Of a stretch of 64,000 nucleotides of DNA, positions 70 to 64,000 are shown piece by piece. Source of the stretch: Pseudomonadales bacterium (GTDB lineage Bacteria; Pseudomonadota; Gammaproteobacteria; Pseudomonadales; DC-out160); NCBI GenBank assembly GCA_019090455.1, contig JAHRWA010000067.1, positions 1 through 64,000 of the forward strand. Direction: 5' to 3'. The first letter of the stretch is position 1. Each line of letters begins with the position of its first letter. The notes beneath the pieces are model-generated. The model ran no database searches. It was not told the origin of the DNA and saw only the letters and a list, made by a program, of their open reading frames with translations. The position numbers were made by a program, and so were the translations under genes.

Positions 70-196
70 AAGTTAACGGGACAGCAGTGGTACTTTTTTT
101 GACTTTGATTTAAAAAATGATCTTTTGAAAACAAGAAACAAGAAATAATAATTCTAACGTGAGCAATTAAGCGGGCGAGTCTAAAGGAGATTGAAA

Positions 197-23326: not shown

Positions 23327-26300
23327 ATGACGGTTGTTGAATTTCTCTCCTCTTTAGCGAAAAAAGATATTCGTTTGTGGTTAGAGGAAGGGAACTTACG
23401 TTTTAATGCGCCAGAGGGGGCTTTTACGGCTGAGGTTCGCGATGAGATTGTAGCTCGTAAGCCTGAGATTATCGCATTTCTCTCCCGCGTGACAAAGTAT
23501 GTGGATACACCTATCGCGTTAGCTTCTCGAGATGAGCCACTTAGCCTTTCGTATTCACAACAACGGCTCTGGTTGCTGGACCAGCTTGATCCAGGTAGTG
23601 CAGCTTACAGTATGCCCGTCATCTTACGTTTGGAAGGCGAGCTTGATGTCAATGTATTACAACAAGTTCTAGCGAGTATTGTTAAGCGTCATGAGATTCT
23701 TCGCACACGGTTTGATGTTGTAGATGGAGTCGCTGTTCAAGTAATCGACCCCCCCTCGGCGAACTGGCCATTGTCGGTGACCGAGTTAAAATTAGGTTTA
23801 GAGTTAAATGATTCGCCAGGAGCACAAAGACAAGACGCACTCAGGAAGTTAATACAAGAAGAGGTTGCTGCGCCTTTCGATCTCTTAGCAGGCCCTGTTT
23901 TTCGAACGCGATTAATTAAGCTTTCGGATTCTAGTTCTAGCTCGAGCTCTGCGGATGAGTACATACTGCTAGCCAATATGCACCACATTGTCTCTGACGG
24001 TTGGTCCATGGGGGTTTTGGTCAAAGAGGTTTCCAGTTTGTATGCTGCCCTCAGCGCGGGGACCTCGATTTTGTTGCCTCCACTGCCACTGCAATATGCC
24101 GATTATGCGGTTTGGCAGCGCCAGTGGTTAAGCGGAGAAGTGTTAGAACGACAGCTAGATTACTGGAGAAAACAACTAGAAGGCGTGGCTGTTTTAGCCT
24201 TACCGACAGACCATCTGCGTTCCGCTGTGGTCTCCGATGCGGGTGCTGAATTCACATTCGATTTGCCTGATGAGTTAACGCAAAATTTACAAGCGCTAGC
24301 GCTCGATAAAGAAGTGACTCTATTTATGTTGCTACTGGCAGCATTTAATGTGTTATTGCATCGTTATACTGCTCAGTCGGATATTTGTGTCGGTAGTCCC
24401 ATTGCCAATCGCAGTCGTCAGGAGTTGGATTCTTTAATCGGGTGTTTTGTTAATACGCTTGCGTTTAGAAATGATTTAAGTGGTGATCCGACCTTTAGTG
24501 AATTATTGGAACAGGTAAAGGAGCATGCGCGTAGCGCCTATGAACATCAAGATGTACCATTTGAACGCTTAGTCGATGAGTTGGGTGTGGCTAGGGATAT
24601 GAGTCACACGCCTCTCTTTCAAACCTTTTTTGTTTTACAAAATCAACATGAATTTTCGACGCTTGAGCTGGGTGGACTGAAGGTTTCGCCAGTGGATCTG
24701 GATATTCGCACATCCAAATTCGATTTAAGTTTAGCAATGGCAGAGAGTGAAAAATCATTGGCTGGGAAGTTCAGCTATCGTACGCAATTGTTCGACGAGG
24801 AAAGTATTCAGCGATTGGTTGCCAATTGGCAATGCTTACTAAACGCCATCGTCAGCAACCCCAATGAAAAAATAGCAAAACTCAATTTACTCAGTCAGTC
24901 TGAAAAACGGCGGTTAGTGGTAGACCTCAATCTAACGAAAACGCAATCTTTCGTCGAACATGAGTATTGCCTGCATCAGCTGTTTGAAAAACAAGTTGAA
25001 ATATCCCCGAATAAAATTGCCTTAGTGTTTGGCGATAAGCGAATGAGTTACGAGGAGCTAAACGCAAAATCAAATCAACTCGCACGCGTTCTTCAACGAT
25101 TCAAACTTCAACCCGATAGCCTAGTGGGGCTGTGTGTTGAGCGTGGTATAGAAATGGTTGTTGCCATTTATGGGATACTCAAGTCGGGTGCAGCCTACGT
25201 GCCTCTTGATCCCGCCTATCCAAAAGATCGTCTACGTCATATGTTGTCGCACAGTGGCGCGAGTGTGCTGCTGACTCAAAATCATTTACGGGCGCTCATG
25301 CCTGAGACTAACGCAGAGATAGTCTGCTTGGATGACTTTTCCGATAAGATAGGTAAAGAGAATCAACATAATCTCAACATAGCGGTGCAAGCAAACCAGT
25401 TGGCTTATGTTATCTATACCTCGGGCTCAACGGGTGTACCTAAAGGTGTCGCTATCGAACACCGCAATACAGCCGCCTTAGTAGATTGGGCGAAAACGGT
25501 TTATTCTCAAGATGATTTAAATGGCGTTCTAGCGGGCACATCAATCTGTTTTGATTTGTCCGTATGGGAAATCTTCGTCACCTTATCTTGTGGCGGAAAA
25601 CTGATTATCGCTGAAAATGCCCTAGAACTACCGGATATTCCCGCAGCTCACGAAGTTAGACTTGTGAATACTGTTCCTTCCGTTATAGCCAGTTTGCTCC
25701 GAGAAAACGCAATTCCACCGCAAGTGCGCGTGATCAATTTAGCCGGCGAGGCGTTAAAGCAGACCCTAGTCGATGCCCTTCATAACAAGGTTGGAATCGA
25801 AAGAGTTTATGATTTATATGGCCCTTCAGAAGATACCACTTACTCCACATTTGGTTTACGCACCGCCGGAGGTAGGGCGAATATCGGTCGTCCTATTCAG
25901 AATACACAAACTTATATATTAGATAAATATCTAGCCCCGGTTCCTTATGGCGTGCCGGGCGAGCTTTTTGTTGCAGGTGGTGGCGTAGCGCGGGGTTATC
26001 TAAACGAGCCGAAGTTGACTGCTGAAAAGTTTCTATCAAATCCCTTTAAAGATAACCGAATGTATCAGACCGGCGATTTAGTCCGGTATTTACCTGACGG
26101 GAAATTGGAATACCTGGGGCGTATTGATGATCAAGTGAAAGTCAGAGGCTTTCGAATTGAATTAGGAGAAGTGGAGTTAGCGGTACTTCAGCATGTAGCC
26201 ATTGAAGAAACGCTGGTGACCACGCGAGAGGCGGATGATGAAGAGGGCGTAGACCGATTGTTAGTGTGTTTCATCGTAGTGAAATCAGACTGTCAATTGG

Positions 26301-29300
26301 AGTCCACCGGGCCTAACAGTTTGAGAATGTTTTTGAAGGAGAAGTTACCTGACTACATGATCCCTTCGGAATTTGTATTGCTAGACGAATTCCCCCTGAC
26401 ACCCAATGGCAAAGTGGATCGACGAAAATTACTTGCGACTATTCCGAGTTTGAATAAACTGTCAGATCCTTCAGAGCAGGCTTTCATTGCACCACGATCA
26501 GAAGTGGAAATTCAGTTGGCCTTGATTTGGAAGCAGGTGCTTGGGCTTGATACAGTAGGTGTGCGAGACAATTTCTTTGACCTAGGTGGGCATTCTCTTA
26601 TTGCTACGCAAGTGCTCTCTCGGATGAGACTTCAGTTTAAACTCGAATTACCGCTGCGAACGATATTTGTTAATCCCACGATTGAATCCATCGCGATAGC
26701 GATACAGACAGCGCAAAAGGACCAGTCACACCCAACATCGAATGCTGGCCCCATAGTTGCGTTCCCCCGTGATAGTCAAACCGAAATCCCTTTGTCATTT
26801 GCACAGCAGAGACTTTGGCTAATCGATAAAATTGAATCAGGTAGTGTTGCCTACAATATGCCAGCGGCTTTTCGGGTCAATGGTGCGTTAGATCCTGACA
26901 TATTGCAGCAAGCGATGGATGCCATTATTGAGCGTCATGAAATACTACGAACCACTTTTAGAGAAGACAACGACTCTGTTACGCAGTGTGTGCATGCCGT
27001 CGCTAATTCTAGTTTTAAGAAAAAACAGCCCCACTATTTCTCAACACAAAACCTATCACATTTGCAGGGGGATATTTTAGAGAAAGCAATAAACTATCAT
27101 GTGATGGCTGAAGCAACTCAAGGATTTAATTTAAGTGCCGGTCCTCTTCTGCGTATCCGAATTTTAGATCTCGCTCAAGACGAATACGTAGTCCTAGCCA
27201 CGATGCATCATATTATTTCAGATGGTTGGTCTATGGGGGTATTAATCAGTGAGCTGCAAACCTTGTATGGGGCTTTTCAACGGGGAGAGCCTTCGCCCTT
27301 AAACCCATTGCCAATACAGTACGCTGATTTTAGTGTTTGGCAACGGGATTGGTTGCAAGGTGATGTACTCGACCAACAGCTACATTATTGGCAAAAGAAC
27401 CTTTCGAATGCGCCTCTAACAGTATTACCCACTGACTTTCCCCGTACCAACGATGCCAATTATCAGGGTGACGTTGAACTGTTTCGTGTTGGCAAGGAAT
27501 TGACCCAGCGCTTGGATACGCTGAGCAAGGCAGAGGGCTGTACGCTTTATATGACTTTGATGGCTGCCGTTAATGTGCTGCTAAGCCGCTACTCTGAGCA
27601 ACAAGATATTGTGATAGGCACACCGATTGCGAACCGGAATCGAGTGGAGCTAGAGCCATTGATCGGGTTTTTTGTGAATACCCTAGCGATTCGCACTGAC
27701 TTATCAGAGGACCCATCGTTTATTACTATCGTGCGACGAGTGAAGGAGTCCACCTTAGGTGCTTATGCCCATCAGGATGTTCCCTTTGAGCGACTGCTTG
27801 ACGAGTTACAGTTAGAACGGGATCTCAGTCGATCTCCTCTTTTTCAGGTTCTTTTTGCTTTTCAGAATACGTTGGATAGTCAATCCCTAACACTTAATCA
27901 ATCCGGAACACTTAATCATTCAATAACGATGCCCGGTTTTGATATGGTTCCCATGGAATCTTCATCTCAGCAAGTGAAGTTTGATTTGTCCATTAACATG
28001 AGTCTAGTGGATGGTGAAATACAAGGGTCGATCAGTTATAAAACCGGATTGTTTACACAAGAAACGATAGCCGCAATGACGGGATATCTAGTGAAAGTGT
28101 TGGATAGGGTGGCGGTGACGCCGTCACTCACTCTTTCGAGTATGCCGGTATGGTATCGCAAGGATAGCCTACTCACGGATGAAGTACTTAATGATAATCT
28201 AGCGCTTACTGTCACTGCTTCGTCTCAAGACTTATCACTCAAAGACGTTTCTTATCTTGGTCCCAGAAATGAAATAGAAACTGTTGTTCAGCGGTCATGG
28301 GAGACGGTTCTCAAGCGCGAGAATATTAGTATCACTAGCGATTTTTTCGAATTGGGTGGGCACTCTCTATTAGCCAATCGGATAGTCTCCCGGTTACGGC
28401 GACGTTTTAAAGTCAAACTTCCGTTGCGGCAATTGTTTGAGAACCCCACCATAGAGGGCATAGCGAGCTTGATTGAAGATGCCTTAGCAGACGGGCAACA
28501 TTTTCAAATGGCTTCGGCTGCAAGCAAAATACCATTAGCAGATCGTCAGCAGAAATTGCCACTTTCTTTTGCGCAAGAACGCATGTGGTTTCTCGATCAA
28601 TTAGATCCCGGTGGCGCTGCCTATAATTTGCCGATCGCATTGCGTTTAACGGGTAAGTTAGAACCAGAAATATTGCAGCTCGCCTTTACTGAATTGGTGA
28701 TCCGCCATGAGATTCTAAGAACAACTTTCCATGTAGAAGACGACGAGGTTTGGCAAGAGATACATCCTGTTGATGAATGGCCGTTGCCTATAGTCGACCT
28801 TTCTCATCTTTCAGTCGATGCTGCTAATGCCGAACTTCAAGCTCTGGCCACCAAAGAGGCGACTCAAGGATTCGATTTGTCCACGGGTCCATTAATGCGA
28901 ACGTCCTTGATCAAATTGCCGATCAGTACGCAGCGGGCCTTGCTCGCGACGATGCATCATATGATTACTGATGGATGGTCCTTAGGTTTATTGATGCAGG
29001 AACTCAGCGCGCTTTATGATGCTTTCAGTAAGGGTGTTGCGCCTTCATTCTCGCCGCTAGAAATTCAGTATGCGGACTACGCTTTTTGGCAGCGTCATTG
29101 GTTGGATGGTCAGAGGTTGGATGGTCAGAGGTTGGATGGTCGCAGTGTAAAGGAATCCCAATTTAAAGACGAAGGAATCGATGTCAGCCTAAAAGAACAG
29201 ATCGATTATTGGCGTGCTCAAATCAAACCAGAGTCATTCGTTTTAAACTTGCCCACCGACTTTCCGAGAGAAAATAAGCAATCCTTAGCAGGGGGCAGTG

Positions 29301-31975
29301 TAACGTTAGTCTTGCCAAAGAGCTTAAGCCATCGTATCCATCAGCTCAATCAACAAGAAGGCTGCACGCTTTATATGAGTTTGTTGGCTGTCTTCAATAT
29401 CCTCTTGGCGCGCTATACGGGGCAACAAATTGTTAATGTAGGCTCTCCCATAGCCGGTAGAAACCGGGAAGAGATAGAACCTTTGATCGGTTTTTTTATC
29501 AACACTTTAGTCATGAGTGTTGATGTGTCGAGTAACCCGTCTTTTATAGAATTATTGCGACGAGTTCGAGAGGTGGCTTTGGGTGCTTATGCCAATCAAG
29601 ACCTGCCATTTGAAAAATTAGTAGAAGAGTTGAATCCACCACGTGATCTGAGTCGAACACCTCTGTTCCAAGTCTTCTTAAACGTACTAAACCTGCCTAC
29701 CATAGAAACCAGTATGGAAGCTCTTAAGGTAGAAAGTCTAGAGAGGGAAGAATTCGAAGCACAATCTAAATTCGATTTAACGCTATATGTTAAGGAAGTT
29801 AAGGCAGTTAAAGAGGCTGAAGGCGAAATAAAGGGAAGCGATGATTTAACAAAAGATATTGAGGAATCAGGAAAGTCTATTGTACTAAACCTTGTTTATA
29901 ACCGGGCATTGTTTAGTGCTGACCGAATGGCGTTACTACTAGAACATTTTCAAATGATATTAAATCAGGTAGTGACTAATCCAGATGAGGGGGTTGATTC
30001 TCTTTCTTTCTCTAATGGAATGTCTCATGCATGCGCCTCTCTTCCCGTGTTAGAGCAAGCAATCCCACGAGTGGAGTATGAAAGCCCATTGGCTAGTTTC
30101 GAAAGGCATGCGTTGAAAAATGGATCGTCGATTGCAGTAACTGATCAATGGGGAGAGTGGAGTTATCAACAACTTGATGATGCCAGTACGCGATTAGCTA
30201 ACGCACTGATGAGTGGCCAGTTAAAAATAGAGACGGGTGACTGTGTCGCAATCTATGCTGCCCGGCAAGCCAATTTGGTAGTGGCATTATTAGGGTGTTT
30301 TAAAGCCCGTATTCCTTTCGCGCTACTCGATCCGGCTCATCCCCATGGGAAGCTGGTAACAATGTACCGCTCTTTAGGAAAAGCAGTGTGGTTACAACTG
30401 TCCACTAGAGCTTTGCCTGAACAGCTTGAGGCTGGATTATCAAAGCAATCTTCTAACCGACGTTTAACGTTAGCGTCAGAATATCCCCTTATGGTTGAGC
30501 AGTTGGAACTCAATACCACAGCTCCCTTAGTATCATTAGAATCACAAAGTGAAGACGATATTGCTTACTACAGCTTTACCTCGGGAACCACGGGGGAACC
30601 GAAGCTCATTGCTACCAGCGTCAATCCGCTGGGTCATTTTCTACATTGGTATCAAGAGACTTTTGATTTTACCCAACAAGATCGCTTTAGCGTGTTGTCT
30701 GGTTTAGGGCATGATCCTTTATTGAGAGATATTTTCACACCATTGTCTGTGGGTGCTCAGTTGCATATGCCTAATACCGATACTTTATTGGAGTCTGGCT
30801 GCTTGGCCCAGTGGTTTGTTGATAATGCCATTACAGTCACTCATCTGACGCCGTCTATTGCCCACTTGATTCTTGATAATGAACAGCCGTTGCAATCGGA
30901 TACACTGCGATTAGTGTGTTATGGCGGTGAAGAATTGAGAGCGCATGATCTGGAGAAGATGAGAGCCTTTGCATCGCAAGCAAAAATGATTAACTTCTAC
31001 GGTGCTACTGAAACCCCGCAAGCTGTTTCTTACAAAGAGTTGTCTTTCATTGAAAATCAAAGCCCTTTGATCGGAGATCTCATTACCGTGGGCCAAGGTA
31101 TTGAAGGCGTCGATATCTTGGTCCTGAATAGTGAAGGACGGTTAGCAGCAATAAGTGAAGTCGGTGAGGTTTGTATTCGTACGCCTTATTTATCCCAAGG
31201 TTATCTAAATGACAGAGCCTTAACCGAGCAGCGATTCAAAATTGTTAATTGGAGTAGTACTGAAGAGCGAGTGTATTTCACTGGCGATCAGGGACGATAC
31301 TGTATTAACGGGGACGTAGAGCTGTTGGGACGATCTGACAGTCAGGTTAAAGTGCGCGGCAATCGAATTGAGCTAGGTGAAATCGAAGCCGCATTGAATA
31401 CAGTGGAATGGATACAGCAGGCGTGTGTATTGGTACAAGAGGCTGACTTAGTGGTTGCCTTTTTGACGGCGACTGACAAAGAGGCGGGGGCATTGGATGC
31501 TACGCTTGTTAACCCATTACGTGCTTCACTTTCTGCAACGTTACCGGAGTTCATGATCCCCAGTGTTTTTAGGCTGGTGGATCGCATACCGTTAACGCCC
31601 AGTGGCAAGATGAATAGAGGATTGTTGCCGAAGGTCAACCCGACACAAATCACTGGTGTTGAATATGTCGAGCCCACTACCGATGTGGAAAAACTGGTTG
31701 CAGCTATGTGGCAGGATATTTTGAATGTTGAAAGAGTGGGATTGAAGGATAACTTTTTCCATCTCGGTGGACATTCATTATTAGCAACAAAAATAGTGGC
31801 AAGAATCAGAACGCAATACGCAATCGAGCTACCGCTGCGATCCTTATTCGAAGAGCCAACTCTGGAGAATCTGACGAAGTTTGTGGAGACGACATTGTGG
31901 GTTCGGGAGACCGAGGAGGGGAAGGTTGATGATGACTCGCAAGTGGATGCCGACCGGGAGGAGTTTGAGCTTTAA
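23327..31975 (+). CDS. Non-ribosomal peptide synthetase 1: docking-C-A-T-C-T-C-A-T
   Basis: A complete NRPS gene, 2882 aa. Domain order by approximate residue: TubC-type N-terminal docking domain 1-58; C1 70-520 (HHIVSDG 218); A1 540-1030 (TSGSTG 698); T1 1060-1130 (GGHSL 1089); C2 1155-1605 (HHIISDG 1294); T2 1643-1715 (GGHSL 1678); C3 1745-2220 (HHMITDG 1877); A2 2250-2765 (TSGTTG 2418); T3 2780-2850. Module 2 has no A domain. A1 pocket residues, by alignment to GrsA, read D-L-W-N-N-A-L-T-Y-K, which resembles alanine-type codes from memory (weak). A2 has GHDPLLRDIF in place of the FDxS motif, giving D-P-R-H-C-G-F-Q-A-K, which I do not recognise. There is no thioesterase, so another protein must finish the chain. 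ATG 23327 follows AAAAGG. Confidence 0.93.
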   Translation: MTVVEFLSSLAKKDIRLWLEEGNLRFNAPEGAFTAEVRDEIVARKPEIIAFLSRVTKYVDTPIALASRDEPLSLSYSQQRLWLLDQLDPGSAAYSMPVILRLEGELDVNVLQQVLASIVKRHEILRTRFDVVDGVAVQVIDPPSANWPLSVTELKLGLELNDSPGAQRQDALRKLIQEEVAAPFDLLAGPVFRTRLIKLSDSSSSSSSADEYILLANMHHIVSDGWSMGVLVKEVSSLYAALSAGTSILLPPLPLQYADYAVWQRQWLSGEVLERQLDYWRKQLEGVAVLALPTDHLRSAVVSDAGAEFTFDLPDELTQNLQALALDKEVTLFMLLLAAFNVLLHRYTAQSDICVGSPIANRSRQELDSLIGCFVNTLAFRNDLSGDPTFSELLEQVKEHARSAYEHQDVPFERLVDELGVARDMSHTPLFQTFFVLQNQHEFSTLELGGLKVSPVDLDIRTSKFDLSLAMAESEKSLAGKFSYRTQLFDEESIQRLVANWQCLLNAIVSNPNEKIAKLNLLSQSEKRRLVVDLNLTKTQSFVEHEYCLHQLFEKQVEISPNKIALVFGDKRMSYEELNAKSNQLARVLQRFKLQPDSLVGLCVERGIEMVVAIYGILKSGAAYVPLDPAYPKDRLRHMLSHSGASVLLTQNHLRALMPETNAEIVCLDDFSDKIGKENQHNLNIAVQANQLAYVIYTSGSTGVPKGVAIEHRNTAALVDWAKTVYSQDDLNGVLAGTSICFDLSVWEIFVTLSCGGKLIIAENALELPDIPAAHEVRLVNTVPSVIASLLRENAIPPQVRVINLAGEALKQTLVDALHNKVGIERVYDLYGPSEDTTYSTFGLRTAGGRANIGRPIQNTQTYILDKYLAPVPYGVPGELFVAGGGVARGYLNEPKLTAEKFLSNPFKDNRMYQTGDLVRYLPDGKLEYLGRIDDQVKVRGFRIELGEVELAVLQHVAIEETLVTTREADDEEGVDRLLVCFIVVKSDCQLESTGPNSLRMFLKEKLPDYMIPSEFVLLDEFPLTPNGKVDRRKLLATIPSLNKLSDPSEQAFIAPRSEVEIQLALIWKQVLGLDTVGVRDNFFDLGGHSLIATQVLSRMRLQFKLELPLRTIFVNPTIESIAIAIQTAQKDQSHPTSNAGPIVAFPRDSQTEIPLSFAQQRLWLIDKIESGSVAYNMPAAFRVNGALDPDILQQAMDAIIERHEILRTTFREDNDSVTQCVHAVANSSFKKKQPHYFSTQNLSHLQGDILEKAINYHVMAEATQGFNLSAGPLLRIRILDLAQDEYVVLATMHHIISDGWSMGVLISELQTLYGAFQRGEPSPLNPLPIQYADFSVWQRDWLQGDVLDQQLHYWQKNLSNAPLTVLPTDFPRTNDANYQGDVELFRVGKELTQRLDTLSKAEGCTLYMTLMAAVNVLLSRYSEQQDIVIGTPIANRNRVELEPLIGFFVNTLAIRTDLSEDPSFITIVRRVKESTLGAYAHQDVPFERLLDELQLERDLSRSPLFQVLFAFQNTLDSQSLTLNQSGTLNHSITMPGFDMVPMESSSQQVKFDLSINMSLVDGEIQGSISYKTGLFTQETIAAMTGYLVKVLDRVAVTPSLTLSSMPVWYRKDSLLTDEVLNDNLALTVTASSQDLSLKDVSYLGPRNEIETVVQRSWETVLKRENISITSDFFELGGHSLLANRIVSRLRRRFKVKLPLRQLFENPTIEGIASLIEDALADGQHFQMASAASKIPLADRQQKLPLSFAQERMWFLDQLDPGGAAYNLPIALRLTGKLEPEILQLAFTELVIRHEILRTTFHVEDDEVWQEIHPVDEWPLPIVDLSHLSVDAANAELQALATKEATQGFDLSTGPLMRTSLIKLPISTQRALLATMHHMITDGWSLGLLMQELSALYDAFSKGVAPSFSPLEIQYADYAFWQRHWLDGQRLDGQRLDGRSVKESQFKDEGIDVSLKEQIDYWRAQIKPESFVLNLPTDFPRENKQSLAGGSVTLVLPKSLSHRIHQLNQQEGCTLYMSLLAVFNILLARYTGQQIVNVGSPIAGRNREEIEPLIGFFINTLVMSVDVSSNPSFIELLRRVREVALGAYANQDLPFEKLVEELNPPRDLSRTPLFQVFLNVLNLPTIETSMEALKVESLEREEFEAQSKFDLTLYVKEVKAVKEAEGEIKGSDDLTKDIEESGKSIVLNLVYNRALFSADRMALLLEHFQMILNQVVTNPDEGVDSLSFSNGMSHACASLPVLEQAIPRVEYESPLASFERHALKNGSSIAVTDQWGEWSYQQLDDASTRLANALMSGQLKIETGDCVAIYAARQANLVVALLGCFKARIPFALLDPAHPHGKLVTMYRSLGKAVWLQLSTRALPEQLEAGLSKQSSNRRLTLASEYPLMVEQLELNTTAPLVSLESQSEDDIAYYSFTSGTTGEPKLIATSVNPLGHFLHWYQETFDFTQQDRFSVLSGLGHDPLLRDIFTPLSVGAQLHMPNTDTLLESGCLAQWFVDNAITVTHLTPSIAHLILDNEQPLQSDTLRLVCYGGEELRAHDLEKMRAFASQAKMINFYGATETPQAVSYKELSFIENQSPLIGDLITVGQGIEGVDILVLNSEGRLAAISEVGEVCIRTPYLSQGYLNDRALTEQRFKIVNWSSTEERVYFTGDQGRYCINGDVELLGRSDSQVKVRGNRIELGEIEAALNTVEWIQQACVLVQEADLVVAFLTATDKEAGALDATLVNPLRASLSATLPEFMIPSVFRLVDRIPLTPSGKMNRGLLPKVNPTQITGVEYVEPTTDVEKLVAAMWQDILNVERVGLKDNFFHLGGHSLLATKIVARIRTQYAIELPLRSLFEEPTLENLTKFVETTLWVRETEEGKVDDDSQVDADREEFEL
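29102..29146 (+). repeat. 15-bp x3 in-frame tandem repeat in NRPS 1
   Basis: ttggatggtcagagg occurs twice exactly and once as ttggatggtcgcagt, encoding LDGQR, LDGQR and LDGRS. It lies in C3 at the point where other C domains read WL.G..L..QL.YW, so it lengthens a surface loop. Confidence 0.88.
29789..29815 (+). repeat. 9-bp x3 in-frame tandem repeat in NRPS 1
   Basis: gttaaggaa, gttaaggca and gttaaagag encode VKE-VKA-VKE inside a Lys/Glu-rich insert near the end of C3. Confidence 0.7.
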
Positions 31976-33019: not shown

Positions 33020-33254
33020 TAAGGTATTCATTGCTACATCCAGTCTATTTTTTATTAGGCAATCCCCTGCCTTTAAATCACCTGATCAATCGGTGGAAGC
33101 TCTTCAGTAAGATAATTCACTATCTTGTGCACACACGTAATCAAATAATGGTACAGACCACGAGTTTCGGGGACTGACAGATGCTATAGTTTTCCTAATT
33201 GCTAGATTCCTAATTTAAATATTGTTTCATCGCATTTCTTTTTTGGGTAGATTT

Positions 33255-34283
33255 ATGCCGTACTTACCAATGGTAATAATATGTTTGTTTTTCACGACGA
33301 TTCTAGGCTGTAACGGCTCAAGCTTGGACAATTCGGAAGAAAATACGAATGAAGTGACAGAATACCAAGACGTTCTTTCTTCGTTATCCTATATGACAGG
33401 CTATCCTGTTGGCGTAAATGTAGAGAGAACAATTGCCATGACAGTTTGGTTCCCAGAACAATATGACGAGCTAATGCCCGTTATCATTGTTTCACATGGA
33501 GGCATGGGAAGTATTAATGGACACAGGCAGTTTTTACACCTCGCCAAAGAATACACAAGCAATGGCTATGTTTCGATACACATCAATCATCCTACCTCGA
33601 AAACTACAGGCAATGAGGCACAAGAACTAGCGTTTCATCTCTGGGATCGTCCTTCTGATGTTATTGCAGTGCTGAATGCTCTCGAAAATGACACTCTATC
33701 TTTAGGCCCACTGACCGCCTCCCTAGATCTGAATTCAATTGGTTTCATTGGGCACTCTTTAGGAGCTTATACTGGTCATGCTGTTGCGGGGGGTAGATTT
33801 GTTGATCCTACAAACTCTAATGCTGAATGGGGTTTTCACGATGAGAGAATAAAAGCCGTTGTATTATTGTCTCCTCAAGGCTTTGACGCATTTGGTAGTT
33901 TCGATGAAGAGCATAGTCTCGACATGACTTCTTCACTCAATAGCTGGCAGGATATTAATATTCCAAGTTATTGTCTTGTTGGTGAAGCTGAAAAAGACGG
34001 TGTGGCGGGTGTGTCCGACTTAACTTCTTGTCCGGAGTGTTTTCGCTTGATTGATTGGAGACTTTTTCCATTTTACCGCTATCCCTTAGACGGTACGAGA
34101 TACCTTTCAATTATTCCTATGCAAAATCATCATCAAATGGGAGAGGGTGGAAGTGATGAAGTTAAGGAATTTATTTCTAAGAATTCCCGATTGTTTTTTG
34201 ATTTTTATCTGAAGAGCGAAGGAGAAGCAGACAAGATAGGGGATGAGAATAATTCTGTTGGTGCAATAAAATATAATCGATGA
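33255..34283 (+). CDS. Alpha/beta-hydrolase lipoprotein (PAF-acetylhydrolase/dienelactone hydrolase-like)
   Basis: A predicted membrane-anchored esterase of 342 aa. The N-terminal hydrophobic segment ends in ILGC with the lipidated Cys at 19. The fold signatures are SHGGMG near 80 (oxyanion region) and the nucleophile elbow GHSLGAY with Ser168. MQNHHQMGEGG near the C-terminus probably supplies the catalytic His. The frame is open back to TTG 33222, which would add basic residues to the signal peptide; neither start has a strong ribosome site, so the start is uncertain. A related hydrolase lipoprotein gene lies 0.9 kb downstream. The substrate is unknown. Confidence 0.78.
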   Translation: MPYLPMVIICLFFTTILGCNGSSLDNSEENTNEVTEYQDVLSSLSYMTGYPVGVNVERTIAMTVWFPEQYDELMPVIIVSHGGMGSINGHRQFLHLAKEYTSNGYVSIHINHPTSKTTGNEAQELAFHLWDRPSDVIAVLNALENDTLSLGPLTASLDLNSIGFIGHSLGAYTGHAVAGGRFVDPTNSNAEWGFHDERIKAVVLLSPQGFDAFGSFDEEHSLDMTSSLNSWQDINIPSYCLVGEAEKDGVAGVSDLTSCPECFRLIDWRLFPFYRYPLDGTRYLSIIPMQNHHQMGEGGSDEVKEFISKNSRLFFDFYLKSEGEADKIGDENNSVGAIKYNR

Positions 34284-34801: not shown

Positions 34802-35152
34802 ATAATTCTTACCTTCTATTTACATACCCGTCTGTTGTCCAGTCGTCAAATAGTTTATTTGGTTTATACAAAAAACTACATTAGCCTTGTTTTTTCGACC
34901 TAATTGCAGCGAAACCTACCACAGTCTGGAATGAAAATTACAAGAATAATGGAAATATTTATTGTAATTGTTTGATATGAACTTTAGGTATATTTCCTAA
35001 ACCTTAAAGTTTAGTATTAGCGGCTTTTTTTAAAACCGAATGGAGTTGGAAAAGCACGAATCACTGCTATCGTTTTAATGCGAAAGTTCTCTGAATACGA
35101 AAGTTCTTTGAATACAACAATTAGCAGCACATTAATAACTTGGGAATATATT
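34802..35152. other. Intergenic region without a recognisable gene
   Basis: AT-rich divergent gap. TTGGGAA at 35140-35146 is the likely ribosome site for the next gene. The stretch 35078-35152 is open in frame with it but has no ribosome site or signal-peptide character. Confidence 0.35.
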
Positions 35153-50887: not shown

Positions 50888-51284
50888 CGTTTATCTCCTC
50901 AAAGATCCAATTCCCATAGTGTTACTTTTTCCCATGGGCCAAAATAAGTATAGAACGGAAACTTTCGGTACGCGGATAAAGTGAATACTTAAGCCAGTTC
51001 TGAGAGTAGTGAGAGTGTTTTCATTGATAATGAATAATGGGTGAACGCTAATTCGAGTTAAATAGAATGAGATCGATAAAGTGCTTTGTTATTTATATTA
51101 ATGGCTTTCGCGTTTTAAGTGGAGTTTACTAGAGCGTTGCGACGTGAGATGCTGATATTGGTTTGCGTTCTCGTGCTCTCTGAATTAATTATGAACATGC
51201 TACACTTTACTTTATTCGCATTTAAATAATGCCAATGCGACTATGTTCCATAGAGCAGTCCTCTTCGTATTAGGTGATTTGGCC
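50888..51284. other. Divergent intergenic region without a recognisable gene
   Basis: Gap between the kinase and the chemoreceptor-like gene. The stretch 51243-51284 is open in frame with the next gene but has no ribosome site. No clear promoter motif is visible. Confidence 0.35.
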
Positions 51285-52469: not shown

Positions 52470-52470
52470 T

Positions 52471-52493
52471 AATGACCGAATTCAAAGGTCATT
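52471..52493. terminator. Weak hairpin between convergent genes
   Basis: AATGACC and GGTCATT pair around a 9-nt loop just after the receptor stop, followed by CTTCTAT. It is a modest bidirectional terminator candidate. Confidence 0.4.
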
Positions 52494-52506
52494 CTTCTAT
52501 ATTCTT

Positions 52507-53871: not shown

Positions 53872-53958
53872 GAGAATTACTCTATTTCGGTTGCTCTCTT
53901 TAATGCGACTAGGATTATGCCAGATGTAAGCTCTGATTTAATCTAGGCTCCGAGGTTT

Positions 53959-54336: not shown

Positions 54337-54711
54337 ACAAATCACCCTGAAGTTACTGGTTTGATCAAAACAGACAACGAACAGCAAAAACGTTTCATTG
54401 TTCTCTTCGCATTTTCATTAAGCGTAGCATCCTGATCGTATCTGTCCTTCGGTAGAAAGTGTTTCCCTAGCCATAGATTGAAATATCATAAGACCGGATT
54501 GGTCATAAGAAAAATAGGGGTAAAAGAGTGATGTTCGCCATACAAAATAGGCAATGGAAATAACGTGATGTGCTGGAGTGAAAGTGATCTACGAGCTGCT
54601 ATGCTTCTTATTATGTTCTCGGATAATGAACGTCATATTCGATTGGCGATGCGAGTAATAAATTGATTGAAAATGTACGTTATATTTGGTCAGTTGTGTT
54701 CAGAGAGATAG
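54337..54711. other. Divergent intergenic region without a recognisable gene
   Basis: Spacer between the CheY-like gene and the CheX-kinase gene. It must contain promoters for both directions. I see no clear motif. Confidence 0.35.
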
Positions 54712-56371: not shown

Positions 56372-56835
56372 TGATTATAACTTGATAGGGGTTCTTCTAT
56401 GGCCGGTTTTTCCAAAGATTGGCTTCGATAAACTGATCCTATCCTGAATGACTTTCACTGCTACAACATACTCCCCTTTTTCTAACTTCCCTTTTTTCAA
56501 GATTTTCTATTCTTCAATTGGTATGGTTTCCAGTATCCGATATTTGAGTCTTTAATGAACGATTAAAAGAAAAGTGAGGAATCTACTGATTTTGCTCTAT
56601 ATTTGATTGGTAGGTGAGCTTTTGTCGGTTTTGTTGTTGATTTTTATGGTAAAACTACAAGTATGCGCGGCATTCTCTATGGGGCTGTTTAACAACTGTG
56701 TAACTACAGGATTCTTCGAGTAGGGAGTTCAAGAAAAATAAGAATATTCAATCAGTGGCCAGAGTCAGGAACGTCATCCAAAGTGGCCGTAACCTTTGCC
56801 CAATCTATCCAATATCACTCTCGGGATCAGTCCTT
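56372..56835. other. Intergenic region before NRPS 2
   Basis: No gene or RNA recognised. The NRPS 2 frame is open upstream to a GTG at 56755, but that stretch has no docking-domain character. The promoter of NRPS 2 should lie here; I see no clear -35/-10 pair. Confidence 0.4.
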
Positions 56836-59800
56836 GTGACTATTGTTGATTTCCTGTCGGAACTTAGGTTAGCCGATATCAGGCTATCCCTTAACAACGG
56901 TAAGTTAAAAGTCAGCGCGCCAGCCGGTGCATTGACCGGTGAAATCAAAGCGCAATTAAAAGCGCGAAAACAAGAGATTCTTGATTTCTTGGCAGCTGTG
57001 GATTCCTCTTCTGTCATTTCCTCTGGGGCTGATCCACAGGACCCTTCTTCAATCCTCTCGTTTTTGAAGTCAGCTGCTTTAATTTCAGCAAAATTAACAG
57101 CAGACGAGGCAGATAAGACAGGCTTATTTCCCTTATCCTTCGCCCAAGAAAATCTCTGGTTTTTGTATCAGATGAATCCACTGAGCACGGCGTACAATAT
57201 GCCGATTACCGTGCGTTTAAGAGGGCAGCTGGACTTAGCGGTATTTGAGCGTGTTATTGAGGAGGTGATCCGTCGTCACGAAAACTTAAGAACCACTTTT
57301 GCTGAGACAGATGACGGTGAAGTTTATCCCGTGATACACGAATCCACTTCATGGAAATTGGAAGTTGATGATTCGGTTTTTTCTTCTCTGGGTAGTGATG
57401 ATTTAAGTGACCAATGTATCGACCAATTTATCAATGAATGTATAGAACAAGAAGTGCAGCGTCCTTTCAGTCTCGAGAAGGGTCCGCTGTTTCGGCTGCG
57501 ATTGATTCCACTGCATTCGAAAAAAACCGAAGATCCTCAGGATGAGTGCGACTATCTCATGCTAGCGGGCATGCATCATATTGTTTCTGACGGTTGGTCT
57601 ATCAATGTCCTAATGGCGGAAATAGGCGCGTTGTATGTCGCCTACCTTCAGCATCAGCCTTCCCCCTTCGCGGACCTTCCGATTCAATACAGCCATTACG
57701 CGCAATGGCAACGTCAGCGTTTGCAGGGTGAATTATTAGAGGGTCAACTGGGTTACTGGACTAAATTATTAGACGGCGCGCCTAGTCATATTGGTTTGCC
57801 AACGGATCGGCCAAGACCGGCGGTACAGACCGATAATGGCGCGCGCTTACCCATAGAATTCTCCACAGCCTTAAGTGCCAGATTAGATCGTTTTTCTCAA
57901 GATCAAGGTCTCACCCTATTTATGACCTTGATGGCGGGCTATCAGATTTTATTGTCACGCTATGGGGGGGAGGAGGACCTGTGTGTTGGGATTCCCGTGG
58001 CGGGGCGGCGACAGCAGGAGACCGAAGGGCTGATTGGTTTTTTTGTTAACGCATTAATTACGCGCACAGATTTGAGTGGCAATCCTTCGGTTCGAGACTA
58101 CCTGGCTAGAGTAAAGGGTCTCGTGCTCGATGTCTTTTCTCACGATGAAGTCCCGATGAATACGGTCTTGGATGCGCTAAAGGTGGAGCGTAATCTCAGT
58201 TATTCGCCTTTAGTGCAGGTAGGGTTTCAAATGCAACGCTTTGACGCCAGTGCCAATGAAACTGACATGCAGAATCAGATGATGGCTGAATTAAAGAGGC
58301 TGACCAATCTAGAGATGGAATGGGTGACTGCTAAAAAAATGCCCTCAAAGTTCGATCTTATCTTAAGTCTCAACCAAACCAAGACCGAGCAAGGTGATCA
58401 GCTCACGGGCTATCTCGATTACAATACCGATCTCTACGATGAAGAGACGGTGGTTGCCATGATGCAGCAGTATCATCATCTGCTAGAGGCAATCACACAA
58501 GATCTAGATTGCCCTATTCATCATTTGCCGCTGGTGTCTAAGGACCGTCTTTACGCGTTGTTGGGCGTAGACTGCAATCAAGAAACCATTCTTCCGGTCA
58601 CCGCGAATCAGCGTGGTCTGATTGTGGATTCTCTGTTGCATCCAGACACACTACAAAATTCATTGGGATACTACACCGATATTTTTCAGGAAGTAGATCA
58701 GGATATCTTTGCCAAAGCGGTGCAAGGGGTAACGGATCAACATGGCCTGCTGCGAACGCGTTTTCTCAGCTGTGATTTACCGTATCTCGACGATGTGGTT
58801 CAAATTGTGGCAGCAGAAAAAAAGACGAAATTTACTTTTACTGATTTACGCCATGAGTCGGTAACGCCGCAAGATTATATCGATTCTGTTATTTATAAAC
58901 CCTATGACATATTGAGTGACGATCTATTAGCAATAGAGTTAGTTCAGTTCGACGAGGCGCACTTTGTTGTCATTTGCGCAGCGCATCATGCGTTATTGGA
59001 TGGGGTATCGTTATACGCTCACCTCGATGCAGTGATAGAAGCCTATCTTGGCGACCAAATAAAAACAGAGGATTCGATAGAGGGCCAGTTTGAAAGCCAT
59101 TCGTTTGAAAACTATTTAGCCATTGATAACAAAATCATGGATACGCAAAGGGTTGTTGATTATTGGATTGCGAAATTCAGCACCGTCGACCCCTTGACTA
59201 TTCCGTTTCCACTAGAATCGTCGTCCTTAGAACCGTCGCCATTAGACCAAAAGACCACTGGCTCAGAAGTTCGAGAATTACTCACTATCGACCCCCTCCA
59301 TGTCAAGGCAATGCGAGAGTACTGCGAAGGAGTTGGAATCAGTGTCTCTCTTTATCTTAAGGCTCTCTATAGTATTTTAGTGAAAACGTACTGCGCCACT
59401 GAGAGTGATTTTCATTTATACGAATATTTTGGCGGACGTCCCCCAGGGCATGAGAAATCATTAGGGTGTTATTATCAACAGACTCCCTTTATCGTCTCAG
59501 CAGTTCTTTTTGAACAAGACGCGCTGCTCTCAGACTTGTTCGACTATAGCCGCCAGATGCAGCGGGAGAGTAGAGATAAACGAACCCTTTCTATCTCAAA
59601 GCAGCGTCAAATCGCACCGAAGGGTCCCGTCACATTCCTTTATAACTTTTATCATTTCGATACGGATATTCGTTTTTCTCAAGGAGAAGAGATGTCGGGT
59701 CAGATAAATGATGGGCAGTTAAAGGGCGAGCTGTTAAAGGCCGAAATCGGTTCTCCTAAAGTGGAGTCGGCGGTTCAGCTTATCGTCAAGGACTTGCACG

Positions 59801-62800
59801 GACAGCTTCGTATTGATTTACGATACGATGCCAGGGTGTTTTCCAGTTTTGACTTTGCAGCGCGGCTGATTTCACTCAGTCATCAACTTGTTAAGAATGA
59901 AACTGGTGAGAATCAACTGGGAAGAATAGATGAACTTGATTTTCTCCTACCGAAAGAAAAACTGTTTTTAGCCAATACTGTTTTTCAAAACAGTGCATTA
60001 CCACCGGTTACCTCGGTACAGCAGCTATTTGAACAGCAGGTAGAAAAAACGCCCGATGCAATCGCAGTGACATGTGCGGAGCAAAGCCTAAATTATCAGG
60101 AACTCAACCAGCAGGCGAATCAGTTAGCGCATTATCTACGAGCGCAGGGAATAGAGGCGAATTCGAGGGTCGGTATTTGCGTAGAGCCATCACTGGATAT
60201 GATCGTCTCTGTTTTAGCGGTCTTAAAAGCGGGAGGCGTTTACGTTCCGCTTGATACACGATATCCCATAGAGCGATTGTCATATTTGATTGATGATTCG
60301 GATGTGATGTTGGTGATAACGCAAAGTGGCTTGGTCAGCCGCTTAAACAATTCGAAGGTAAAAGTCTTTGTCACTGATAGTGAAGAGCAAGGGCTCATAG
60401 ATTTTTCTCTAGGCAATCCCAATAACCGAACTCGCCTAGACGACTTGCTCTATATTATTTATACCTCCGGTTCCACAGGTTTACCCAAAGGCGCAGGGGT
60501 GACACATCGAGGAGAAGTTAATTTATTAACTTGGTTTACTCGCGAGTTTGATGTTTCTGCGACGGATAAAACCTTATTGATGAGTGCGTTTGGTTTTGAT
60601 CTGACGCAAAAAAACCTCTTTGCTGTTTTGATCAAAGGCGGCTGCTTAGTGATTCCAGAGCTGGATTATTACGACCCCGATTTGCTCACTGAGCATATTG
60701 AGCGAGATGGAATCACATTACTCAATTGTGCCCCTAGCGCTTTTTACCCTTTGCTGGAAGAGGGCGATTCTTGTTTGAATAGGTTTAGTAACTTAAGTAG
60801 TTTGCGAATTTTGTTTTTAGGTGGTGAACCCATTCGGATTGAGATGTTGTCCCATTGGCTATCTGCAGAGGATTGCATTTGTGAGGTGGTGAACACCTAT
60901 GGTCCAACGGAATGTACTGATGTGGTGGCCTATCACCGTATTGATCCTTCAAGTGGTGAAGGGGCTCCCATGGGCAAGCCCATTGATAATACGCAACTCT
61001 ATGTCGTGGATTCCACGCTTGCGACTATCAAGCCAGTCCCGCTGGGCTTAGTCGGTGAGCTTTGCGTAGCGGGTATCGGTGTAGGCGTGGGTTATTTGTC
61101 TAAAGATGAAAAGGTTGGAAAACAATTAACCGAGTCGGTTTTTATCGAAAACCCCTTTGGTGAAGGGAGGCTGTATCGAACGGGAGATTTGGTACGCTAT
61201 CGAGAAAATGGCGATTTAGAATATATTCGACGTAAGGATTTCCAAGTCAAAATACGCGGTATGCGTATTGAACTAGGCGAGATCGAAGTGGCGTTGAGGC
61301 AACTAGGTGGCGTGAAAGACAGTTTAGTCATTCTCGCATCAGTAGAAAACCAGTTACTCGCCTATGTGGTTTGCGATAGCACTTTTGACCGAGAGTCCTG
61401 GCGTGAAGCGTTACGGAATCACCTACCCAATCACATGATTCCCAATGCACTGATTAGCGTCGATACCTGGCCATTAACACCCAACGGTAAGGTGGATAGA
61501 ACCGCGTTACTCAACTTAGTGGCTAGCAGTGATGCTGATCTGTACGTCGCGCCGCGATCAGAAATCGAATTACAGTTAGTGAGTATTTGGTCCAGCGTTT
61601 TGAAAGTGGATAAGATTGGCGTCTACGATAACTTTTTTGATTTAGGCGGCCATTCATTATTAGCGACCCAAATCGCCGCTCGCGCTCGTAAAGCCTTTAA
61701 TATTCCATTGCAGCTTCGGGATCTGTTAGGGCAACCCACTATCGATGCGATTGCAAAGCAAGTGGCTAAATTAATGAAAGGCGATTCGTCTCTCTCCTTA
61801 GCGCCAGTGATTGAGCGAGCAGACCGTAGTCAACGGTTACCGCTTTCCTTTGCCCAGCAACGTCTTTGGCTGTTGGATCAATTAGAACCGGGATCGGTGG
61901 TTTATAACATGCCATTGACGGTTAGGGTGCGCGGTAATTTGAACGTGGAGTTATTGCGGCAATCTTTTGCAGAAGTGGTCCGGCGGCATGAGTCATTGCG
62001 AACCCTTTTTATTTTAGGGGAAGGTGTTTTAGGGGGTAGTGTTGTAGGAGATGATGAGGATTTAGGTACAGTTTACCAACAGATAGCAGATCCAGCGAAA
62101 AGAGGCGCTAGCGATTGGGCATTACCCGTGACCTCAGTAGCCTTAGAGTCTTTAGGAAACACAATCTCCGCCCAAGAAATAGAAGTGAAGCGTCTGGTGG
62201 CGATAGAGATAATGACGCCTTTCGATTTGGAGACAGGACCGCTTTTTAGAACCTCGTTGTTTAAGTTAGATGAAAACGATTATGTCTTCGTTGCAGTGAC
62301 CCACCACATCGTATCTGATGGTTGGTCCATGGGGCTGATGATACAAGAGGTCGCGTCGATTTATGCGAGTTTATCTCTTGGATATGCCGATGAATACGAA
62401 GACCTTCAATCAAACGAATTGCTATTACATAAAGAAGCGCCGCTACAGTATGCCGATTTCGCACAATGGCAAAGGAACTGGTTACAAGGCGAAGTGTTAC
62501 AGCATGAATTGGATTACTGGAGTGAGCAGTTAAAAGATTTAGAATACTTAAAATTCCCCACCGATTACCCCAGACCACCGATACAGACCTACCAAGGTGC
62601 CAGTTATCCTTTTTCATTAACTCCTCAGCTAAGCAAACGGTTACAGTTATTAGGGCACAGACAAGGCGCTACCTTGTTTATGACTTTGTTGGCGGCCTTT
62701 AAAGTTTTGTTATTTCGCTATTGCGGACAAAATGATATTTGTGTGGGAACACCAACGGCGAATCGCCAACAGGAAGAGTTGGAATCGATAATCGGATTTT

Positions 62801-64000
62801 TCATTAATACACTAGCGTTGCGTACGCAGGTGGAGGGTGAAAGCTCCTTTGTAGAAATATTATCGTCAGTTCAACAAAACACCATGGCCGCGTTTGATCA
62901 CCAAGATGTCCCCTTTGAGCGTATTGTGGAAGAGGTGACAACGCAGCGTGATATGAGTCGCTCGCCATTATTTCAAATCATGTTCGTCATGCAGAATACA
63001 CTGCCTCTTGACCAACAGGTGATTCACGGGGCGGATTTAGTTTTTGAACCTATTACGCCTGATATCGAATCGGCGAAGTTCGATATCACGCTCACTATGA
63101 GTGAAGAGGAAAGTTTGAGTGGCGTCTTCCAGTACAATACAGATCTATTCACTCAATCTCGGATTAGTGATTTTGCTCTCGATTTTGAGCGACTATTAAC
63201 GGCGGTAGTGGATCAGCCTGAGAGTAAAGTTTCGAGTCTGCCTCTCGCTTCACAAATAACGAGTCCTTCAGAATTAAATGGACAGCAAGCAATACCGGAT
63301 TGGAATACAGAGTCTTCGGCTACAACGGAGCTTGCAAGCTCATCATCGATGGGTTATGAGCCGCCTCGTAACGGTGTAGAAGAATCAATACTAGTGATTT
63401 GGACAAAGGTTCTGTCATCTAAAGTTCTTTCATCAAAAGAAAGGGTCGCAACTCAACATCAAAATCAAATCGGTATTCACGATAATTTCTTTGAGCTAGG
63501 TGGACATTCGCTATTAGCCACGCAAGTGATATCAAGAATCAAAAGACAGTTTAAGATTGAGGTGCCACTACGTGTCCTTTTTGAAGCGCCAACCGTGGCA
63601 CAGCTTGCACAGCAAGTAGAGACCCTTCAACAATCAGGTCCACAGATAACGGTCCCAAGAATACAAAAGGTGTATCGAGAGAATAGCCCTATCGCGGTTT
63701 CTTTTGGCCAGCAACGATTATGGTTTCTCGACCAATTAAGTCCCGGTAGTTTCGGTTTTAATATGCCTTTTGCCCTGCATATAAAAGGATGCTTGGATCA
63801 TCACGTTTTACAGAAAACCTTTGCAGAGGTTGCCCGACGGCATGAAGTCCTTCGATCTCGATTTGAATCGAAAGAGGGTGAGCCGGTTGTCGTGATAAAA
63901 GCGACCACGGAGTGGGACTTGTCACTACTCCCCGTGGAGTTGCCGGACACCATGACGGCTAGCCAGCGAGAAGAAAAATACAAAGCGCTAGCAGGAGAGG
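56836..64000 (+). CDS. Non-ribosomal peptide synthetase 2 (partial): docking-C-C-A-T-C-T-C...
   Basis: The frame is open from GTG 56836 to the window end (2388 residues, no stop). Domains by approximate residue: TubC-type docking domain 1-58; C1 98-555 (HHIVSDG 247); a second condensation-type domain 578-1030 (HHALLDG 717, start ILPVTANQRGLIVDSL like the TPxQxGM class); A 1055-1550 (TSGSTG 1210); T1 1575-1645 (GGHSL 1605); C3 1668-2135 (HHIVSDG 1824); T2 2175-2258 (GGHSL 2224); C4 from 2285. The C3-T2 module has no A domain. A-domain pocket residues read D-L-K-N-F-G-T-D-V-K, a code I cannot assign. The GTG start is supported by alignment with the docking domain of NRPS 1; its ribosome site is weak. 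Confidence 0.93.
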   Translation, partial: MTIVDFLSELRLADIRLSLNNGKLKVSAPAGALTGEIKAQLKARKQEILDFLAAVDSSSVISSGADPQDPSSILSFLKSAALISAKLTADEADKTGLFPLSFAQENLWFLYQMNPLSTAYNMPITVRLRGQLDLAVFERVIEEVIRRHENLRTTFAETDDGEVYPVIHESTSWKLEVDDSVFSSLGSDDLSDQCIDQFINECIEQEVQRPFSLEKGPLFRLRLIPLHSKKTEDPQDECDYLMLAGMHHIVSDGWSINVLMAEIGALYVAYLQHQPSPFADLPIQYSHYAQWQRQRLQGELLEGQLGYWTKLLDGAPSHIGLPTDRPRPAVQTDNGARLPIEFSTALSARLDRFSQDQGLTLFMTLMAGYQILLSRYGGEEDLCVGIPVAGRRQQETEGLIGFFVNALITRTDLSGNPSVRDYLARVKGLVLDVFSHDEVPMNTVLDALKVERNLSYSPLVQVGFQMQRFDASANETDMQNQMMAELKRLTNLEMEWVTAKKMPSKFDLILSLNQTKTEQGDQLTGYLDYNTDLYDEETVVAMMQQYHHLLEAITQDLDCPIHHLPLVSKDRLYALLGVDCNQETILPVTANQRGLIVDSLLHPDTLQNSLGYYTDIFQEVDQDIFAKAVQGVTDQHGLLRTRFLSCDLPYLDDVVQIVAAEKKTKFTFTDLRHESVTPQDYIDSVIYKPYDILSDDLLAIELVQFDEAHFVVICAAHHALLDGVSLYAHLDAVIEAYLGDQIKTEDSIEGQFESHSFENYLAIDNKIMDTQRVVDYWIAKFSTVDPLTIPFPLESSSLEPSPLDQKTTGSEVRELLTIDPLHVKAMREYCEGVGISVSLYLKALYSILVKTYCATESDFHLYEYFGGRPPGHEKSLGCYYQQTPFIVSAVLFEQDALLSDLFDYSRQMQRESRDKRTLSISKQRQIAPKGPVTFLYNFYHFDTDIRFSQGEEMSGQINDGQLKGELLKAEIGSPKVESAVQLIVKDLHGQLRIDLRYDARVFSSFDFAARLISLSHQLVKNETGENQLGRIDELDFLLPKEKLFLANTVFQNSALPPVTSVQQLFEQQVEKTPDAIAVTCAEQSLNYQELNQQANQLAHYLRAQGIEANSRVGICVEPSLDMIVSVLAVLKAGGVYVPLDTRYPIERLSYLIDDSDVMLVITQSGLVSRLNNSKVKVFVTDSEEQGLIDFSLGNPNNRTRLDDLLYIIYTSGSTGLPKGAGVTHRGEVNLLTWFTREFDVSATDKTLLMSAFGFDLTQKNLFAVLIKGGCLVIPELDYYDPDLLTEHIERDGITLLNCAPSAFYPLLEEGDSCLNRFSNLSSLRILFLGGEPIRIEMLSHWLSAEDCICEVVNTYGPTECTDVVAYHRIDPSSGEGAPMGKPIDNTQLYVVDSTLATIKPVPLGLVGELCVAGIGVGVGYLSKDEKVGKQLTESVFIENPFGEGRLYRTGDLVRYRENGDLEYIRRKDFQVKIRGMRIELGEIEVALRQLGGVKDSLVILASVENQLLAYVVCDSTFDRESWREALRNHLPNHMIPNALISVDTWPLTPNGKVDRTALLNLVASSDADLYVAPRSEIELQLVSIWSSVLKVDKIGVYDNFFDLGGHSLLATQIAARARKAFNIPLQLRDLLGQPTIDAIAKQVAKLMKGDSSLSLAPVIERADRSQRLPLSFAQQRLWLLDQLEPGSVVYNMPLTVRVRGNLNVELLRQSFAEVVRRHESLRTLFILGEGVLGGSVVGDDEDLGTVYQQIADPAKRGASDWALPVTSVALESLGNTISAQEIEVKRLVAIEIMTPFDLETGPLFRTSLFKLDENDYVFVAVTHHIVSDGWSMGLMIQEVASIYASLSLGYADEYEDLQSNELLLHKEAPLQYADFAQWQRNWLQGEVLQHELDYWSEQLKDLEYLKFPTDYPRPPIQTYQGASYPFSLTPQLSKRLQLLGHRQGATLFMTLLAAFKVLLFRYCGQNDICVGTPTANRQQEELESIIGFFINTLALRTQVEGESSFVEILSSVQQNTMAAFDHQDVPFERIVEEVTTQRDMSRSPLFQIMFVMQNTLPLDQQVIHGADLVFEPITPDIESAKFDITLTMSEEESLSGVFQYNTDLFTQSRISDFALDFERLLTAVVDQPESKVSSLPLASQITSPSELNGQQAIPDWNTESSATTELASSSSMGYEPPRNGVEESILVIWTKVLSSKVLSSKERVATQHQNQIGIHDNFFELGGHSLLATQVISRIKRQFKIEVPLRVLFEAPTVAQLAQQVETLQQSGPQITVPRIQKVYRENSPIAVSFGQQRLWFLDQLSPGSFGFNMPFALHIKGCLDHHVLQKTFAEVARRHEVLRSRFESKEGEPVVVIKATTEWDLSLLPVELPDTMTASQREEKYKALAGE
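59209..59253 (+). repeat. 15-bp x3 in-frame tandem repeat in NRPS 2
   Basis: ccactagaatcgtcg, tccttagaaccgtcg and ccattagaccaaaag encode PLESS, SLEPS and PLDQK inside the second condensation-type domain. Confidence 0.75.
63408..63437 (+). repeat. 15-bp x2 in-frame duplication in the T2 domain of NRPS 2
   Basis: aaggttctgtcatct is followed by aaagttctttcatca, encoding KVLSS-KVLSS within the first helix-loop of a carrier domain. A further His/Gln-rich stretch lengthens the loop before NQIGIHDNFFELGGHS. Confidence 0.75.

What the first reader, a model, noticed from the sequence alone, without database searches (positions are those of the whole stretch)
26790..28480. A-less C-T module in NRPS 1
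C2 is followed by a T domain after only about 50 linker residues; roughly 500 residues of adenylation domain are absent. The normal pre-T linker (…PR(S/N)E(I/V)E…) is kept, as if the A domain had been cleanly removed. Both C2 (HHIISDG) and T2 (GGHSL) look functional. Known ways to run such a module are loading by a trans-acting A domain or passing the chain through unextended.
Basis: partly seen in the sequence, partly recalled or inferred. Interest (0 to 1): 0.75.

Follow-up and report, generated by a model that had tools for sequence, protein, structure and literature searches.

The report
NRPS module lacking its adenylation domain
One module of a bacterial peptide-making enzyme lacks the part that selects its amino acid, and so does one module of a second such enzyme nearby; both are kept intact in a sister species, so they probably borrow a neighbour's selecting part, a trick already known elsewhere.

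Summary
NRPS1 (window 23327-31975, 2882 aa) reads TubC_N-C1-A1-T1-C2-T2-C3-A3-T3. Between C2 and T2 there are 32 residues, against 526-612 in 35 canonical C-A-T modules of this genome and its sister species. It is not an artefact or a decaying module. The same C-T junction is present in a second species of the genus, where T2 is 89-90% identical (second best of 16 orthologous T pairs) although synonymous sites are saturated, while the C2-T2 linker is only 22% identical. All seven C motifs and the T2 serine are intact. The most obvious route, a dedicated free-standing A or A-T protein, was looked for and not found; MbtH is also absent. That leaves intermodular loading, most simply A1 charging T1 and T2 in cis. 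This C-A-T-C-T layout is the one shown to work that way in fungal SidC, with bacterial parallels in yersiniabactin HMWP2 and capreomycin CmnA/CmnI. Passing the chain through unextended is not excluded. It is a new member of a known kind of non-canonical NRPS.

The parts
23327..31975 (+). NRPS1 gene, 2882 aa, TubC_N-C1-A1-T1-C2-T2-C3-A3-T3
   Evidence: ORF; Pfam; HMM map
23333..23485 (+). TubC_N (beta-hairpin) N-terminal docking domain
   Evidence: PF18563 residues 3-53, E 3.3e-20
23543..24916 (+). C1 condensation domain
24983..26413 (+). A1 adenylation domain, pocket code DLWNNALTYK (Ala-like by recall); the proposed donor for both T1 and T2
   Evidence: 429.6 bits, over cut-off; printed positions 330/331 are shifted by one; corrected by hand
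26480..26668 (+). T1
26777..28156 (+). C2 condensation domain of the A-less module; HHIISDG, second His codon at 27209-27211
   Evidence: 395 bits; within the main LCL-like C clade
28157..28249 (+). C2-T2 linker (about 31 residues) where an A domain would normally lie; disordered in the model, 22% identical to the sister species
28250..28474 (+). T2 carrier domain of the A-less module; Ser1680 codon at 28364-28366
28550..30013 (+). C3 (contains an insert that splits the Pfam match)
30095..31621 (+). A3, Lys2/aminoadipate-like adenylation domain, code DPRHCGFQAK
   Evidence: best stretch of TIGR03443
31661..31849 (+). T3, followed by an acidic C-terminal tail ending DREEFEL (candidate docking motif)
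56755..64000 (+). NRPS2, incomplete at the contig end (67631): TubC_N-C-C*-A-T-C-T-C-C*-A...
61831..63255 (+). C domain of the second A-less module (NRPS2 module 2)
63355..63582 (+). T domain of the second A-less module; 34 residues from the C domain

Best explanation
This is a working A-less elongation module. T2 is phosphopantetheinylated on Ser1680 and charged by an A domain that serves another module, most likely A1, which sits immediately upstream in the same chain and would load both T1 and T2 (in cis, one module downstream). C2 then joins the chain on T1 to the aminoacyl group on T2, and C3 passes it on. A1's code resembles alanine codes, so the simplest prediction is that the A1 residue is inserted twice in a row. 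NRPS2 would use the same rule for its own module 2. Shown: absence of A, intact C2 and T2, conservation with purifying selection in a second species, no free-standing NRPS-type A domain found. Inferred: that A1 is the donor, the residue, and that the module extends the chain.
For: Same junction in a second species, at 63% protein identity over the junction and with a syntenic upstream gene. T2 is 89% identical with pN 0.07 against saturated pS 0.73, C2 68%, linker 22%; T2 is the second best conserved of 16 orthologous T pairs. NRPS2's A-less module is likewise conserved: C 80%, T 81%, linker 45%. Own-genome TIGR01733 search: the best single-domain ORF reaches 259.5 bits and lies next to a PrmC-like methyltransferase and an asparagine-synthase-like gene, so probably the exosortase-associated ligase type; no A-T-only ORF. 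The sister genome shows no clear one either, though it is fragmented. No MbtH gene. Precedents with the same logic: SidC C3-A3-T3-C4-T4, where A3 loads T4 even with T3 mutated (PMC10192304); HMWP2 A loads PCP1 and PCP2 in cis and PCP3 in trans (PMC9547227); CmnA-A1 loads CmnI-T (PMC12400406).
Against: Nothing in the sequence ties T2 to A1: T2 is not a copy of T1 (best own-genome identity 50%, to the NRPS2 A-less T), C2 is not sister to C1, and the two A-less C domains are not sisters, so no shared donor can be read from phylogeny. The assembly is in 106 contigs and NRPS2 is cut by a contig end, so a dedicated A or A-T gene could be missing. Several well-studied bacterial A-less C-T modules (rotihibin, WS9326A, syringomycin) use separate A or A-T proteins.
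Confidence: 0.5

Rival explanations
1. T2 is charged by another A domain already in the assembly lines (A3 of NRPS1, an A domain of NRPS2, or one of the other NRPS lines of the genome) acting across modules or proteins, as CmnA-A1 does for CmnI.
For: More than 20 full-strength NRPS A domains exist in the genome. Inter-protein loading is proven for CmnA/CmnI (PMC12400406) and HMWP2/HMWP1 (PMC9547227). Two A-less modules in neighbouring NRPS genes could share one donor.
Against: Needs a longer-range contact than A1. The cis case studied in SidC is an upstream A acting one or two modules downstream.
Confidence: 0.2
2. Pass-through or skipping: T2 is never aminoacylated. The chain moves from T1 to T2 (or straight to C3) without extension.
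For: Explains the missing A without any donor.
Against: A merely skipped module should decay, but C2 keeps all motifs and T2 is among the most conserved carriers between the two species. An active, unextended transfer through T2 would also keep them conserved, so this is not excluded.
Confidence: 0.17
3. A dedicated free-standing A or A-T protein loads T2 in trans, as in rotihibin, WS9326A, enduracidin and syringomycin.
For: The usual solution in several bacterial clusters (PMC8552735, PMC7539972, PMC8949500).
Against: No such gene found in the genome or clearly in the sister genome. The one AMP-binding gene in the window outside the NRPSs (191-1756) scores 109.5 bits with TIGR01733 against a cut-off of 317.4 and looks like an acyl-CoA synthetase beside an efflux pump. 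No MbtH gene, although the WS9326A trans-A enzymes depend on MbtH-like proteins.
Confidence: 0.1
4. Assembly error or recent inactivating deletion.
For: Draft assembly; junctions of repetitive NRPS modules can collapse.
Against: Same in-frame junction in an independent species, in both NRPS1 and NRPS2, with a diverged linker.
Confidence: 0.03

Closest known systems
SidC/SidD fungal siderophore synthetases (PMC10192304)
   Same: C-A-T followed by C-T in one chain; the A-less T is loaded by an upstream A domain.
   Different: Fungal, loads N5-acetyl-hydroxyornithine, A-less modules at the end of the line. Here a bacterial line with an internal A-less module, an Ala-like A1 code, and no demonstrated loading.
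Yersiniabactin HMWP2 (PMC9547227)
   Same: Bacterial; one A domain serves the next, A-less module in cis.
   Different: HMWP2 uses heterocyclisation domains and cysteine; here the domain is an ordinary LCL-like C.
Capreomycin CmnA-A1/CmnI and viomycin VioA-A2/VioI (PMC12400406)
   Same: A-less module charged by an A domain of another module. CmnI structure 9uay is among the fold matches of C2.
   Different: CmnI is a separate T-C protein, with an MbtH partner for CmnA-A1; here C2-T2 are built into the chain and no MbtH gene was found.
Rotihibin RthA module 2, WS9326A Cal19, syringomycin SyrE module 9 (PMC8552735, PMC7539972, PMC8949500)
   Same: C-T module without A; in RthA it is also module 2.
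   Different: Those are served by separate A or A-T proteins; none found here.
Thalassospiramide synthetase module 1 (PMC5577590)
   Same: Missing A function thought to be covered by A domains elsewhere in the pathway.
   Different: There the A domain is truncated, not cleanly absent, and it is the first module.

Membership tests
A-less (C-T) NRPS elongation module | C and T adjacent in one chain with no A domain between | tested here: met
   32-residue gap against 526-612
A-less (C-T) NRPS elongation module | Catalytically intact C and T | tested here: met
   Motifs and model; activity itself not tested
A-less (C-T) NRPS elongation module | Maintained by selection | tested here: met
   Two species, two NRPS genes
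Loaded in cis by an upstream A (SidC/HMWP2 type) | Complete A-bearing module directly upstream in the same protein | tested here: met
   C1-A1-T1 precedes C2-T2; A1 429.6 bits TIGR01733
Loaded in cis by an upstream A (SidC/HMWP2 type) | Upstream A transfers its residue onto the A-less T | not testable with these tools
   Needs intact-protein mass spectrometry
Served by a dedicated free-standing A or A-T protein (RthB/SyrB1 type) | A-only or A-T-only gene of NRPS type in the genome | tested here: not met
   draft assembly, 98.3% complete
Served by a dedicated free-standing A or A-T protein (RthB/SyrB1 type) | Shuttle aminoacyltransferase (SyrC or TEII type) in the cluster | tested here: inconclusive
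   Alpha/beta hydrolases at 33222-34283 and 35078-36532 begin with lipoprotein-like signals, unlike cytosolic shuttles
Skipped module | Carrier domain not modified or inactive | tested here: inconclusive
   T2 serine and surroundings strongly conserved; modification not testable here

The most novel reading that the evidence does not exclude
A bacterial assembly line in which two consecutive NRPS proteins each contain an internal A-less module charged in cis by the A domain just upstream, so that 'one A, two carriers' is a repeated design rule, doubling a residue twice in one product.
Probability: 0.35. Interest if true: 0.5.

Novelty: new member of a known kind. Interest (0 to 1): 0.33.

Why it matters
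Predicting a peptide from an NRPS gene assumes one A domain per residue, and A-less modules break that rule. This locus offers a compact bacterial case, an internal C-A-T-C-T block present twice with no obvious external donor. It could show whether ordinary LCL-type bacterial modules use cis intermodular loading, which is useful for product prediction and for engineering shorter synthetases.

Tried and rejected
Duplication origin (C2-T2 as a copy of C1-A1-T1 that lost A): not supported, since C2 is not sister to C1 and T2 is only about 50% identical to its best own-genome match. Common origin of the two A-less modules: not supported by the C tree. The acyl-CoA synthetase at window 191-1756 as the trans donor: rejected, far below the amino-acid adenylation cut-off and beside an efflux pump. 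The C78 single-domain ligase as donor: rejected on score and neighbours. dN/dS in the strict sense: synonymous sites are saturated, so only pN and identity contrasts are used. Naming the organism: the genome-contig scan returned no record of this genome. Frequency of A-less modules in the order: the order-wide profile search scored only 7 candidates per genome at E<=1e-25, so it gives examples, not a rate.

Full report
What was claimed.

Check of the observation. The gene is one open frame, 23327-31975. Pfam and domain models built here agree on TubC_N-C1-A1-T1-C2-T2-C3-A3-T3. The distance from the end of C to the start of T is 526-612 residues (median 548) in 35 canonical C-A-T modules of this genome and its sister species, and 32 here. 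C2 carries all seven condensation motifs, including HHIISDG; T2 has FFELGGHSLL with Ser1680. AlphaFold on an 11-sequence alignment (mean pLDDT 76.7) shows a complete condensation fold, a disordered linker of about 30 residues and an intact carrier bundle. Its best fold matches are ordinary C domains and PCP-C didomains, and CmnI is among them.

More than one. NRPS2, whose 5' part lies in the same window (56755 onward), also has an A-less module 2: a C domain at 61831-63255, then a T domain after 34 residues. In the NRPS contigs of this genome that I fetched, these two are the only A-less C-T modules.

Not an artefact and not decaying. A second species of the genus has both genes with the same junctions. 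The upstream DUF1631/GGDEF/EAL gene is syntenic with NRPS1 there. Between the two species T2 is 89% identical, C2 68% and the C2-T2 linker 22%; in NRPS2 the values are 81%, 80% and 45%. Synonymous sites are saturated, so this is strong purifying selection on the domains and drift in the linker. T2 of NRPS1 is the second best conserved of 16 orthologous carrier pairs.

Who loads T2? The usual suspects were looked for. With TIGR01733, every hit above 260 bits in the genome lies in a multidomain NRPS frame. The best single-domain gene (259.5 bits, cut-off 317.4) sits next to a PrmC-like methyltransferase and an asparagine-synthase-like gene, so it is probably an exosortase-associated ligase rather than an NRPS enzyme. 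The AMP-binding gene at the start of the window is acyl-CoA-synthetase-like (109.5 bits). No MbtH gene was found. The sister genome shows no clear free-standing A either, though it is in 570 contigs and 87% complete. A dedicated trans partner is therefore unlikely but not excluded, because the contig ends inside NRPS2.

Mechanism. The layout C1-A1-T1-C2-T2 is the layout in which SidC A3 was shown to load T4 one module downstream, even with T3 mutated (PMC10192304). HMWP2 does the same in a bacterium (PMC9547227), and CmnA-A1 loads a separate A-less protein (PMC12400406). The simplest explanation is that A1 loads T1 and T2. A1's pocket reads DLWNNALTYK, which by recall resembles alanine codes, and is the same in the sister species (the script printed positions 330/331 one residue early, corrected by hand). 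The prediction is a doubled residue. Shown: architecture, integrity, conservation, lack of a found external donor. Inferred: identity of the donor, the residue, and that the module extends the chain.

What the phylogeny does and does not say. C2 falls in the main LCL-like clade, but is sister neither to C1 nor to the A-less C domain of NRPS2. T2's best own-genome match is only 50%. The two A-less modules thus look independent in origin as far as these trees resolve, and neither looks like a recent copy of its neighbour.

Elsewhere. A-less C-T junctions also turned up in Tumebacillus lacus, Pseudosporangium, Actinokineospora, a Streptosporangiaceae strain, Nostoc, Rhizonema, Corallococcus llansteffanensis and another genome of the same order, where it is a terminal C-T module. 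These are examples and not a census.

Verdict. Real, functional-looking and conserved, but of a kind already described. The cis-loading reading is testable with an established assay.

Noticed in passing
window 58582-59493 (NRPS2); also contigs C39, C14 and C79 (L061-L065, L067): Several modules have an extra C-like domain between C and A (C-C*-A-T). These C* domains form their own well-supported group in the C tree, keep an HHxxxDG motif (e.g. HHALLDG), and match solved structures only weakly. Function not worked out.
   Followed up: partly
window 30095-31621: A3 of NRPS1 is Lys2/aminoadipate-like (TIGR03443 stretch, code DPRHCGFQAK). With C3 it resembles module 1 of the 7859-residue NRPS on contig C39.
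   Followed up: partly
L067 (contig C79), 1-6899 and 7022-8002: An 8.3-kb contig with C*-A-T-C-A-T-TE is probably the missing 3' end of NRPS2, judging by parallels with the C39 line and the sister species; a tyrosine integrase gene lies next to it.
   Followed up: partly
window 31955-31972 and 23333-23485: NRPS1 ends in an acidic DREEFEL tail and both NRPS1 and NRPS2 begin with TubC_N docking domains, suggesting NRPS1 hands its chain to NRPS2; the binding pair was not tested.
   Followed up: no
window 51243-55977: Between the two NRPS genes lie an MCP-like protein, two proteins with CheX-like domains (one fused to a histidine kinase) and a response regulator, an unusual chemotaxis-like signalling group.
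   Followed up: no
window 33222-34283 and 35078-36532: Two alpha/beta-hydrolase-like proteins with lipoprotein-type signals just downstream of NRPS1; no assigned role.
   Followed up: no
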